A DNA stretch of 64,000 nucleotides from Leptospiraceae bacterium (GTDB taxonomy: Bacteria; Spirochaetota; Leptospiria; Leptospirales; Leptospiraceae): positions 186,001 to 250,000 of the forward strand of contig JAKRSH010000043.1 in assembly GCA_022402465.1 (NCBI GenBank), read 5' to 3'. The notes under the pieces were generated by a model. It did not search any database. It was given only the letters and a program-made list of their open reading frames with translations, and had not been told where the DNA came from. This document shows positions 52,515-59,850 of the stretch, in pieces; positions within the stretch are counted from its first letter, which is position 1, and each line of letters opens with the position of its first letter. The translations under genes were made by a program, and so were the position numbers.

Positions 52515-53115
52515 ATGAAACAATTTATAAAATCTAAATTAAATTTTGAAAAATTCTTAAAAAATACAATTTTTTTATTTTTATTTTTGCAATCCCAAAA
52601 ATAAAAATACTAATGAAGAAAATTTAAAATTATATTCATTAATAATAGCTGCTAATCCATCTTTGTTTGGAAATTCTACTTCAAATTCACAAAATCGAGT
52701 TCCAGTTACATCTTGCAGTATAGAAAAATCATCTCCAATTCAATTGACTCAAAATATATCTGTATTAAACACAATTAAAAATAAGGATCTTTGCTATTTT
52801 TCATTCATTCCAGCAACTACTAGTAATTATACGATTACTTTGACACCAAGCTCAAATAGTGATAATTTGCCGTTTAATTCAGATCTGGCTGCAAGTCGTT
52901 CTACTTCTGTAGGTGGAAATAAACCTACTAATTTTTGGACTGGGACTGGTGCTGAATGTACTAATTTTAGCTGGGAGAATTGTGTACACAATGACGGCAC
53001 CAATGCAGAAACTATAACTTACTCTATTGCTGCAGGACAACAAATAGCCATTGGGATCTTTGGATTTGATTGTAGTGCTTTGGACGGATGTAAATTTTCC
53101 CTTAGAGTAAATTGA
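52515..53115 (+). pseudogene. frameshifted surface lipoprotein (possibly phase-variable)
   Basis: The ATG at 52515 opens a signal peptide (KNTIFLFLFLQSQK) that stops after 29 codons. The next frame, from 52588 on, reads CNPKNKNTNEENLKLYSL and continues without stops to 53115. Removing one T from any of the tracts T7 (52570-52576), T5 (52578-52582) or T5 (52584-52588) would join them into a signal peptide ending in a lipobox Cys (IFLFLFC or IFYFYFC). The rest is a beta-rich domain of about 150 residues, with FSFIPATTSNYTITLTP and ITYSIAAGQQIAIGIFGFD, that looks like a pre-peptidase C-terminal fold. A true mutation, a sequencing error or slippage are all possible. Confidence 0.6.
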
Positions 53116-53305: not shown

Positions 53306-54430
53306 ATGAAATTATTTATTTTGTTAACTTTTTTCTTAGCTTATGCTTGCTCCTTCCCTGATATTAAGAATCCCTGCGATCCAAGTTCCAGCACTTATTT
53401 AAATGCTTTTGCTATAAAAATAGCCCTGGGACTAAATAGCCCTCCTTGTGGAACAGACCTAAATTTATCAAGAAAAGAAATCAACTCCTATTCTATCCCT
53501 GCCTTAGGCTTAACAGGTATTATTTCGGGAAATCAAATCAGTTTGGCTTCTGATACTCTGTCAAGTTTCTCTCCTCTAATTGCCAATTTCACCACAACTG
53601 GAAGCTCAATTACTGTTTCGGGAGTAGAGCAACAAAGCGGAGTGAGTGTGAATTCCTATAATACGAATTTAATTTATAAAGTCACAGCTAGAGACGGATC
53701 CTCTCAAGATTATACAGTAACTCTAACTGCGCCGAGAACTTATGGATCAGGTTCTCTAAGGATTTGGTTAAGAGCTGATAGTTTGAATCTGACGGATGGC
53801 GCTCCAGTGGCAACATGGAATGATTTAAGTGGTTTTTCCAATGATTTTGCGCAAGCGATTCCTGCGCAGCAACCGATTTACATAAGAAATCAAATCAACG
53901 GGCTTCCAAGTCTTCGATTCACACAAGTTGCATCCTCAGCACTTGAGACTTCCACAGGGACCGGATTTTATGGAATCAATGATAGTGGATCTTTCTTTAT
54001 TGTGTTAAAATTCAATCAGCACATTGGGGCTGTAACTATTCTGAACCTTTCTGGCGTTAACGGAAGGCAATTTGATATAAGCAATTCCCCTAATGTTGTC
54101 TTTACACCTGGTAGAAACGGTATCGGATCTATAGTGACTTCTGGACTTCTTATTCCACTTTCATCCTACATTGCGATCGGAAGCATACAAAACCTGCTTA
54201 CGAGTCAAAATGAAATTTGGAATGGTGATTTGAAAGGAACGCAAACGGTAGGAGTCCTTGGTTACGTTTCAAGTGGAAGCGCTTACATATCCAATGGAAA
54301 TCTAGATGCAGATATAGCTGAGTTACTGTTTTTCAATACAGCCCTATCGCAAAATGAAATTGATAAAGTTTTCTGCTATTTACGTCTTAAATACAATCTA
54401 ACATCTACCAATAAGAGCTGTGGATTGTAG
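53306..54430 (+). CDS. surface lipoprotein with LamG-like domain
   Basis: A 374-residue lipoprotein. The lipobox FFLAYAC gives Cys at 15. Residues about 50-145 form a cadherin-like/DUF5018-type sandwich with the ending LIYKVTARDGSSQDYTVTLT. Residues about 150-370 form a concanavalin/LamG-like lectin fold (LRIWLRADSLNLTDGAPVAT, AELLFFNTALSQNEIDKV). These domains bind sugars or surfaces in other bacteria. It follows the frameshifted lipoprotein on the same strand after 190 bp of AT-rich DNA. Confidence 0.75.
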   Translation: MKLFILLTFFLAYACSFPDIKNPCDPSSSTYLNAFAIKIALGLNSPPCGTDLNLSRKEINSYSIPALGLTGIISGNQISLASDTLSSFSPLIANFTTTGSSITVSGVEQQSGVSVNSYNTNLIYKVTARDGSSQDYTVTLTAPRTYGSGSLRIWLRADSLNLTDGAPVATWNDLSGFSNDFAQAIPAQQPIYIRNQINGLPSLRFTQVASSALETSTGTGFYGINDSGSFFIVLKFNQHIGAVTILNLSGVNGRQFDISNSPNVVFTPGRNGIGSIVTSGLLIPLSSYIAIGSIQNLLTSQNEIWNGDLKGTQTVGVLGYVSSGSAYISNGNLDADIAELLFFNTALSQNEIDKVFCYLRLKYNLTSTNKSCGL

Positions 54431-56398: not shown

Positions 56399-58196
<1,798 letters not shown>

Positions 58197-58237
58197 TCTA
58201 AAAGTTTGTATAGTATTCTAATAAAATTTTTAAAATT
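58197..58237 (-). promoter_or_regulatory. short AT-rich CRISPR leader
   Basis: Only 41 bases separate the first repeat from the cas2 stop. On the minus strand they include TATACA, with a weak TTTTAA 17 bases upstream, which could drive pre-crRNA. A leader of usual length (60-100 bases) would have to extend into the end of cas2. Confidence 0.5.
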
Positions 58238-58558
58238 TTACAAGGATTTTTGATCCTCATCGGAACTATTTTTATTCATCTTTTTAGGTTTCGATAAAAG
58301 CTGAATTCCATCAAAATCAATAACTTCACGATCTGGATCACCAAATGACTTCAATATATATCCTTGTTCTGTATTGGAGCTATGTAACATAATCGCAGAT
58401 AGTCTCCATTCATCACAAATTTTCTGCCAAAGTTTATCCCTGACTCTCGCGCCTATTGTAGCGACGAAAACACCTGGTTTAATTTCAATAGCTAACCGCG
58501 ACATCTCGCCCTTCTGAGATGTCTTCGGCTTCTCCAACATGATCACGACCATAAACAA
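58238..58558 (-). CDS. cas2: CRISPR-associated endoribonuclease-like Cas2, type I-E
   Basis: A 106-residue Cas2e that joins Cas1 in spacer integration. The start MFMVVIMLEKP aligns with E. coli MSMLVVVTENV, and LAIEIKPGVFVATIGARVRD matches LLEVRAGVYVGDVSAKIRE. Also present is SSNTEQGYILKSFGD. The last 15 residues (KPKKMNKNSSDEDQKSL region) are an added hydrophilic tail. It overlaps the end of cas1 by 74 bp in a different frame. Both full-length products seem needed, so the overlap is real. Confidence 0.93.
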   Translation of the reverse strand: MFMVVIMLEKPKTSQKGEMSRLAIEIKPGVFVATIGARVRDKLWQKICDEWRLSAIMLHSSNTEQGYILKSFGDPDREVIDFDGIQLLSKPKKMNKNSSDEDQKSL

Positions 58559-59369
58559 TCTCCTTAATATCTGGAATAATTCTTTTCATTAGTTTACTTG
58601 ACCGAAATGCATCACGACAGGCAAATCGAACTCTCCTTTCCACATCAAAAGGACTTTCTTTAACTACTTGAAAAGCAATTGGAATGGTAATTTCAGTCTT
58701 GTATAAATCTGCTATGTCATAAACAAAAGACATTTGCTTTCCTGTGTGAACAAAGCCAATAGCTGGAGAGAAACCTGAGCTTAAAATCGCGGCATGAACA
58801 ACTCCATACAAACAAGAATTTGCAGATGATAAGGCTCTATTTAAAGGATCACTGTAATCCCAATTAGATTGATCGTAGCTTCGTCCTTTCCACTCTACGC
58901 TTGTTTCTTCAGAATATTGTTTATAAAATTTTCTTACTCTGGCACCTTCCATACCTCGAATCTGTTCGATAGATGCTCCTTCCTTTATCGATTCATCAAA
59001 TCGCATCTGATACATGAACCTAACAATTCGATCCCTTTCAATTACATTTGCATAGGCCTCTACTTGTCTTAGTAAATTTCTACTAGAGTAAGTACCTGTA
59101 TATCCAGCAGAATAATACCTAACACCCATTTCGCCTGTCCAAGCAAGCAGACACCTTGATTCTGATATTCTCTTGACAGCTTCATGAGTTATCGTAGTTC
59201 CAGGGCCTAACATAACAAGACAAACAGTCTCTATCGGAATTGCTATGCATTTATCTAAATAATGAAAGGCAACAGATTTCTGATATTGGTCGATCTCACC
59301 TTTCTCAAAATATAAGTAAGACCAGTTGTCTTCAAATTTTGGAATTTCTTGCAAATTTCTGTTAGTCAT
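58485..59369 (-). CDS. cas1: CRISPR integrase Cas1, type I-E
   Basis: A 294-residue integrase that inserts new spacers at the leader. Catalytic residues are intact: Glu141 in RGMEGARVR, His208 in GFVHTGKQM and Asp221 in VYDIADLYK, the same numbers as in E. coli. The N-terminal beta-sandwich and the long alpha-helical part (EAYANVIERDRIVRFMYQM) are normal. It is 103 bp after vapC, and a promoter sits in that gap. Adaptation therefore should be functional. Confidence 0.97.
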   Translation of the reverse strand: MTNRNLQEIPKFEDNWSYLYFEKGEIDQYQKSVAFHYLDKCIAIPIETVCLVMLGPGTTITHEAVKRISESRCLLAWTGEMGVRYYSAGYTGTYSSRNLLRQVEAYANVIERDRIVRFMYQMRFDESIKEGASIEQIRGMEGARVRKFYKQYSEETSVEWKGRSYDQSNWDYSDPLNRALSSANSCLYGVVHAAILSSGFSPAIGFVHTGKQMSFVYDIADLYKTEITIPIAFQVVKESPFDVERRVRFACRDAFRSSKLMKRIIPDIKEIVYGRDHVGEAEDISEGRDVAVSY

Positions 59370-59472: not shown

Positions 59473-59850
59473 TTAAAACGAAATTACACTTAACTCAGGG
59501 ATTCTTTCAAATTGCTTATCTCGTGTAAGAAGAGTTAAGTTATTATCAATTGCTTGAGCGGCGATTATCGTATCTGGAATTTTTAAAAGCTTCATTGAGC
59601 GCAGCTCGACGATTTTATTGATTAATTTTTTATTTTCAAATTCAATATTAAACACATTCACTTCTTGTGCAAAATTTTCAAATAAGGCTAATTCATCTAT
59701 ATTAAGATTAGGATATGATAAAAACTCAATACAGGATATTATGCTTATGCTTATTGTTTCGCTTTCATTGTAAAATCGATACAAATCAAGGTCACCCTTG
59801 AGAAAATAAATGATTGCATTCGTATCAAAGAGGTAACTAATCCCATTCAT
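59473..59850 (-). CDS. VapC-type PIN-domain toxin (in cas operon)
   Basis: A 125-residue PIN-domain ribonuclease, a likely type II toxin. The four acidic catalytic positions are present: Asp9 in FDTNAIIYFLKG, Glu42 in SCIEFLS, Asp93 in KIPDTIIAAQ and Asp111 in LLTRDKQF. VapC proteins cleave specific RNAs such as tRNAs. It overlaps the antitoxin gene by 14 bp, the standard arrangement. It lies between cas6e and cas1 in the same direction, an unusual spot. A FitB-like role is an alternative. Confidence 0.88.
   Translation of the reverse strand: MNGISYLFDTNAIIYFLKGDLDLYRFYNESETISISIISCIEFLSYPNLNIDELALFENFAQEVNVFNIEFENKKLINKIVELRSMKLLKIPDTIIAAQAIDNNLTLLTRDKQFERIPELSVISF

What the first reader, a model, noticed from the sequence alone, without database searches (positions are those of the whole stretch)
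52515..53115. Lipoprotein signal peptide broken at T tracts: possible phase variation
The signal peptide and the rest of the protein are one base out of frame, and three T tracts (T7, T5, T5) lie exactly at the junction. Removing one T gives a normal lipobox. This would allow on/off switching of a surface lipoprotein by slippage, or may be a plain pseudogene or an assembly error.
Basis: seen in the sequence. Interest (0 to 1): 0.5.

Follow-up and report, generated by a model that had tools for sequence, protein, structure and literature searches.

The report
Frame-broken lipoprotein gene at a palindrome
A small lipoprotein gene of a probable spirochaete has its export signal one base out of step with the rest of the protein, most likely an ordinary recent knock-out mutation (or a sequencing slip) inside an AT-rich palindrome rather than a genetic on/off switch.

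Summary
The downstream frame is probably a real protein: one weak direct relative, and through it two more (one in the same genome), share lipobox Cys, polar linker and C-terminal motif, all in one frame.

The T tracts alone do not make a switch. The contig has 230 A/T tracts of 7 or more, 188 inside called open frames. Three of 26 lipoprotein-like starts carry T7 or T8 and stay open. None of three relatives has a T run over 4 in its signal peptide. The lipobox is not quite normal: Phe precedes Cys (0 of 26 here), though Phe is in print for Loa22.

The break may thus have arisen by palindrome-templated strand switching as well as by slippage.

Best reading: a recently inactivated lipoprotein gene. 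Sequencing error and phase variation stay open: no reads or second strain were available.

The parts
52515..52604 (+). 29-codon open frame, signal-peptide-like (Lys-rich start, Phe/Leu core), stops before any Cys
   Evidence: coding score 0.18 bits/codon
52561..53115 (+). 184-codon open frame: mature lipoprotein part, no ATG/GTG/TTG before 52663
   Evidence: relatives; synonymous-codon score 0.043 against a mean of 0.053 for 47 short genes, negative in the other two forward frames
52588..52590 (+). TGC, probable lipobox cysteine, preceded by Phe in its own frame
   Evidence: aligned with the Cys of three intact relatives
52570..52576 (+). T7 tract
52578..52582 (+). T5 tract
52584..52588 (+). 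T5 tract
52576..52589 (+). left arm of a perfect 14-nt inverted repeat (loop 52590-52595)
52596..52609 (+). right arm of the same inverted repeat, inside the Lys/Asn-rich codons after the Cys

Best explanation
This is a member of a small family of Leptospirales lipoproteins, silenced in the sequenced clone by a recent one-base (modulo 3) frame change between the hydrophobic core of its signal peptide and its lipobox Cys. A ribosome starting at 52515 makes 29 residues and stops; the mature part has no ordinary start before its Cys, so no lipoprotein is exported (inferred). The change lies in an AT-rich stretch that is both rich in T tracts and one arm of a perfect hairpin. It could have arisen by simple slippage, or by the quasipalindrome route in which a stalled polymerase copies one arm from the other, makes the repeat perfect and leaves a frameshift. 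Shown: the two frames, the relatives, the hairpin. Inferred: recency, loss of function, route of mutation.
For: The downstream frame has no stop for 184 codons and gene-like synonymous codon use. It matches a 208-aa lipoprotein of G029. Searching with that protein found a 154-aa lipoprotein in G024 and a 171-aa ORF on C21 of the window's own genome. All three have a signal peptide and Cys in one frame. A still-open frame argues for a recent change. T tracts are not conserved in the three, against an evolved T-tract switch. The 14-nt perfect inverted repeat is 1 of 3 with arms of 14 or more (loop 3-12) in 378 kb, against 0,0,0,0,1 in five Markov copies. The longest stem at 26 other lipoprotein-like junctions is 9, and 1 of 3000 random 75-mers has a stem of 14 or more. 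Folding z-scores are -3.9 as RNA and -3.1 as DNA. That template switching makes quasipalindromes perfect is in PMC7202029 (abstract and passages).
Against: No close relative or second strain was found, so the ancestral state is inferred. Kinship is weak: 26-30% identity, E 3.0e-4 to G029 in the genome search. The window frame itself found neither the own-genome paralogue at E 1 nor the G024 protein at E 0.01; both came only by way of the G029 protein. The score that includes amino-acid content is low (0.055 bits/codon against 0.155, sd 0.064, for 256 long frames). Two of three reverse frames also score slightly above zero on synonymous codons (0.006, 0.016). The hairpin may be only a by-product of TTT/TTA codons before Cys and AAA/AAT codons after it. 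PMC3711429 (passage) expects singleton frameshifts validated by homologues to be sequencing errors rather than real indels.
Confidence: 0.5

Rival explanations
1. Sequencing or assembly error: the living strain has one intact lipoprotein gene and the draft assembly has one base wrong in a T-rich hairpin.
For: Draft of 45 contigs; the spot combines homopolymers with a hairpin, which I take to be hard to sequence (general knowledge); the downstream frame shows no decay. [quoted passage not shown]
Against: 188 of 230 A/T tracts of 7 or more in the contig lie inside called open frames, so tract errors are not general. The search for other frame transitions (86 candidate pairs) was too noisy to settle it. 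The sequencing platform is unknown.
Confidence: 0.22
2. Phase-variable surface lipoprotein: reversible slippage in the T tracts, or reversible strand switching in the hairpin, turns export on and off.
For: Lipoprotein-type gene, tract inside the first 30 codons, both parts otherwise open. GeneTack counts A/T stretches from 7 nt, and cites Mycoplasma fermentans p78 as switching by poly-A (PMC3711429, passages). Two of three relatives have an A run of 7 or 9 in their first codons.
Against: T7 is ordinary here: 80 T7 and 39 longer T runs in 378 kb. 3 of 26 lipoprotein-like genes carry T7-T8 in an open signal peptide. No T run over 4 in the relatives' signal peptides. Below the T/A cut-off of 11 used for Neisseria in PMC5953494. 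No variant was seen, and none could be looked for.
Confidence: 0.12
3. Recoding: +1 ribosomal frameshift or transcriptional slippage on the T run makes some full-length lipoprotein.
For: T-rich run next to a stable hairpin.
Against: The T TTT TTA heptamer is in phase for a -1 shift (codons), which leads into a frame that stops at 52627; the needed shift is +1. The hairpin begins inside the run rather than after a spacer. The relatives have one frame and need no recoding.
Confidence: 0.05
4. The short upstream frame is chance and the long frame has another start or none.
For: The leader rests on 29 codons and has no homology evidence of its own; Phe at -1 is unusual.
Against: The three relatives have a signal peptide just before the aligned Cys; the leader has a Lys-rich start and a hydrophobic core.
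Confidence: 0.08

Closest known systems
Lipoproteins at G029:C333 (L002), G024:C1 (L123) and, in the same genome, C21 (L125)
   Same: Signal peptide, lipobox Cys, polar linker, C-terminal motif S-[IL]-x-[VI]-[NS]
   Different: Their signal peptide and mature part are in one frame; no T run over 4 in the signal peptide and no junction stem over 7
Poly-A switching of the Mycoplasma fermentans p78 lipoprotein (cited in PMC3711429, passages seen; original not held)
   Same: A/T homopolymer in a surface-lipoprotein gene
   Different: Switching was reported there; here one allele is known and no variation was observed
Quasipalindrome-associated template-switch mutation in E. coli (PMC7202029, abstract and passages)
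   Same: Frame change coinciding with an inverted repeat that is now perfect
   Different: Here the state before the mutation is unknown, so the route is an inference

Membership tests
Phase-variable gene by simple-sequence repeat | Repeat tract long enough to be hypermutable (T/A at least 11 in PMC5953494, for Neisseria; at least 7 in PMC3711429) | tested here: inconclusive
   T7: fails the first cut-off, just meets the second
Phase-variable gene by simple-sequence repeat | Tract length varies among cells or strains | not testable with these tools
   No reads; no second strain in the collections searched
Phase-variable gene by simple-sequence repeat | Tract kept in homologues | tested here: not met
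   Longest T run is 4 in 3 of 3 relatives' signal peptides; two have A7 or A9 in their first codons instead. The relatives are distant, so this is a weak test
Spirochaetal lipoprotein | Signal peptide followed by Cys in one frame | tested here: not met
   Both present but in different frames
Spirochaetal lipoprotein | Permitted residue at -1 | tested here: inconclusive
   Phe: 0 of 26 here, but Leu or Phe is reported at -1 of Loa22 in pathogenic and intermediate Leptospira (PMC4758666 section 21)
Frameshift pseudogene | Intact homologues and a broken frame here | tested here: met
   Three intact relatives, broken frame
Frameshift pseudogene | Decay of the downstream frame | tested here: not met
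   184 codons without a stop, gene-like synonymous codons; so recent, or not a pseudogene
Quasipalindrome template-switch mutation | Inverted repeat more perfect after the event than before | not testable with these tools
   Perfect now; ancestor unknown
Programmed -1 frameshift | The shift leads into the downstream frame | tested here: not met
   -1 leads to a stop at 52627

The most novel reading that the evidence does not exclude
The palindrome, not the homopolymers, is the switch: the hairpin across the lipobox lets the polymerase rewrite one arm from the other, so that export of this lipoprotein is turned off (and rarely on) by template switching, a palindrome-driven form of phase variation.
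Probability: 0.05. Interest if true: 0.6.

Novelty: new member of a known kind. Interest (0 to 1): 0.25.

Why it matters
As it stands it is one broken lipoprotein allele. If the frames were shown to flip, it would be a case of switching in a little-studied Leptospirales lineage, and the perfect hairpin at the break would make a templated rather than a slippage route directly testable. It also warns that T tracts in the signal peptides of AT-rich genomes like this one are too common to be read as switches on sight.

Tried and rejected
Naming the protein: no Pfam or NCBIfam match to the downstream frame at E 1. Two of the three relatives gave sub-threshold hits to PF17065 UPF0669 (L002 E 0.00078; L123 E 3.4e-05); the third, L125, did not. 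The best PDB sequence match had E 1.2. A single-sequence fold was poor (mean pLDDT 44.8) and its structure search gave 0 of 980 matches at E 0.001 or better, so no fold is claimed; a PPC-like beta sandwich is only my impression.

Named relatives: genome contigs gave none for the lipoprotein. A scan with the neighbouring hydrolase listed 80 of 513 relatives; no record titled Leptospira is among those 80, and the other 433 were not seen. Of six unnamed loci compared with those 80, one (L008, G027) matched a 'Leptospirales bacterium' record (L025; 3776 shared 31-mers). No match in plasmids at E 0.01. One Leptospira accession tried was not held.

Synteny: the relatives of the next gene downstream (G029:C112 and G027:C15) have no such lipoprotein beside them among ORFs of 100 aa or more.

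Promoter and terminator scan: 7 promoter-like sites against 6.6 expected, 1 terminator-like site inside the frame against 0.3, uninformative. The contig scan for further frame transitions gave 86 pairs with mixed scores, unusable as an error rate. The scan for out-of-frame leader configurations gave 39 rows over 345 frames, several per frame, not sorted further.

Literature: two searches joining Leptospira with phase-variation and homopolymer terms listed two papers each, none about switching in Leptospira by title and start of abstract; one with slipped-strand mispairing listed seven, none about Leptospira by title. Further listings: 15 of 25 shown; 12 of 27; 8 of 44. These concern the held open-access library only.

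Full report
WHAT IS THERE. The window is G000:C38:186001-250000 of a 3.99-Mb draft genome in 45 contigs. A genome of the same family in the held set, G027, shares a stretch with a record titled 'Leptospirales bacterium', so the host is probably a Leptospirales spirochaete (inference). ATG 52515 opens 29 codons, MKQFIKSKLNFEKFLKNTIFLFLFLQSQK, and stops at 52602-52604. A second frame, one base out of step, is open from 52561 to 53115, 184 codons. It has no ATG, GTG or TTG until 52663, after its Cys. T7, T5 and T5 lie at 52570-52576, 52578-52582 and 52584-52588. The frames could be reconciled anywhere from 52561 to 52601; the lipobox argument narrows this to upstream of 52588.

IS THE DOWNSTREAM FRAME A GENE? 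Probably, on three grounds. It is open for 184 codons in a 36% GC contig. Its synonymous codon use scores 0.043 bits/codon against a mean of 0.053 (sd 0.038) for 47 short genes, while the other two forward frames score below zero; the reverse frames score 0.006, 0.016 and -0.041. It also has relatives. A search of 30 genomes of the order found matches in 3, its own included, at E 0.01. One, in G029 (E 3.0e-4), is a 208-aa lipoprotein starting MKKILLLLILTFLINC. The third, in G027 (E 0.004), falls in a 460-aa ORF that looks like an unrelated membrane protein and was dropped. Searching 392 genomes of the phylum with the G029 protein gave matches in 3 genomes: G029 itself, G024 (154 aa), and two places in the window's own genome, this locus (E 1.1e-4) and a 171-aa ORF on C21 (E 4.5e-4). 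The alignment puts the Cys of all four in one column and shows a shared end; identity is 26-30%. Against it: the window frame used as query missed the C21 paralogue at E 1 and the G024 protein, so those two links run through the G029 protein. The score that includes amino-acid content is low, 0.055 against 0.155 (sd 0.064) for 256 long frames. The relatives of the next gene downstream do not have it as a neighbour.

ARE THE T TRACTS SPECIAL? By length, no. The contig holds 230 A/T runs of 7 or more, 188 of them inside called open frames. Of 26 lipoprotein-like starts picked by a simple filter, 3 carry T7 or T8 in an open signal peptide; the filter probably also lets in some membrane proteins. 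None of the three relatives has a T run over 4 in its signal peptide, though two have A7 or A9 in their first codons. By clustering, yes: T7-N-T5-N-T5 is unique in the contig, and T5-N-T5-N-T5 or longer occurs at 2 sites on both strands against 0.05 expected from a first-order Markov model (the count of 5 includes overlapping starts). A Phe/Leu/Ile core in a genome that uses TTT for 70% of Phe may explain much of that.

IS THE LIPOBOX NORMAL? Not fully. The residue before Cys in its own frame is Phe. The 26 starts have N 8, S 6, A 4, L 3, T 2, V 1, I 1, P 1, and no F. PMC2063517 (passage) lists Ser, Asn, Gly and Ala as commonest at -1 in leptospires. PMC4758666 (section 21 read) reports Leu or Phe at -1 of Loa22 in pathogenic and intermediate species, so Phe is unusual but not excluded.

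A perfect inverted repeat of 14 nt with a 6-nt loop, 52576-52589 and 52596-52609, straddles the break. With loops of 3-12, the contig has 17 perfect repeats with arms of 11 or more and 3 with arms of 14 or more; five Markov copies had 3, 2, 0, 0, 1 and 0, 0, 0, 0, 1. Around 26 other lipoprotein-like junctions the longest stem was 9 (loops up to 20); of 3000 random 75-mers, 1 had a stem of 14 or more; the three relatives have 5, 7 and 6. The stretch folds to -9.7 kcal/mol as RNA (z -3.9) and -9.2 as DNA (z -3.1), and none of 200 shuffles did as well in either. Quasipalindromes are known mutation hot spots in E. coli, where template switching makes the repeat perfect or more perfect (PMC7202029, abstract and passages). 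A perfect repeat at a frame break is what that route would leave. The alternative is that T-rich core codons followed by Lys/Asn codons gave the palindrome by coincidence.

HOW IT MOST LIKELY WORKS. In this clone it does not: translation from 52515 ends after 29 residues and the mature domain is not exported (inferred). The downstream frame has not visibly decayed, so the change is recent or is not real. I put a recent inactivating mutation at 0.50, a sequencing error at 0.22, phase variation at 0.12, two unrelated frames at 0.08 and recoding at 0.05. The sequencing-error share is backed by PMC3711429, which expects singleton frameshifts validated by BLASTp to be sequencing errors rather than genuine indels (passage). 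A -1 shift at the in-phase T TTT TTA leads to a stop at 52627, so the -1 kind of programmed frameshift is out.

COMPARISON. The nearest known switch, the poly-A tract of Mycoplasma fermentans p78, is cited in PMC3711429 (passages; original not held). Published cut-offs disagree on T7: PMC5953494 asks for at least 11 for T/A in Neisseria (passage), PMC3711429 used 7. Membership as a phase-variable gene therefore cannot be claimed; the test that defines it, variation in length, could not be run.

Noticed in passing
window 56399-58197: CRISPR-like array, mostly 61-nt period, repeat like GGTTCAACCCCACGCATGTGGGGAAATG; the 91-nt unit at 56399-56489 recurs unchanged at 56582-56672, so one spacer is present twice. 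The ORF at 58485-59369 (-) looks like Cas1 of type I-E (from recall, not tested).
   Followed up: partly
window 59473-59850 (-): 125-aa ORF that looks like a PIN-domain (VapC-like) protein, next to the putative cas1 (family from recall, not tested).
   Followed up: no
L121 5625-5639 (contig C38 375625): A15 run, the longest A or T run in the contig, about 42 nt upstream of a 117-aa ORF (TTG start 5682); a better length for slippage than T7.
   Followed up: partly
window 53306-54430: Next gene downstream, a 374-aa lipoprotein-like protein with an intact start and matches of 54% and 57% identity in G029 and G027; the G027 match contains one TAG and its ORF ends early, at 324 aa, so that copy may itself be broken.
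   Followed up: partly
L123 and L002 signal-peptide starts: The relatives in G024 and G029 have A9 and A7 runs within the first codons of their signal peptides; tract length in other strains is unknown.
   Followed up: no
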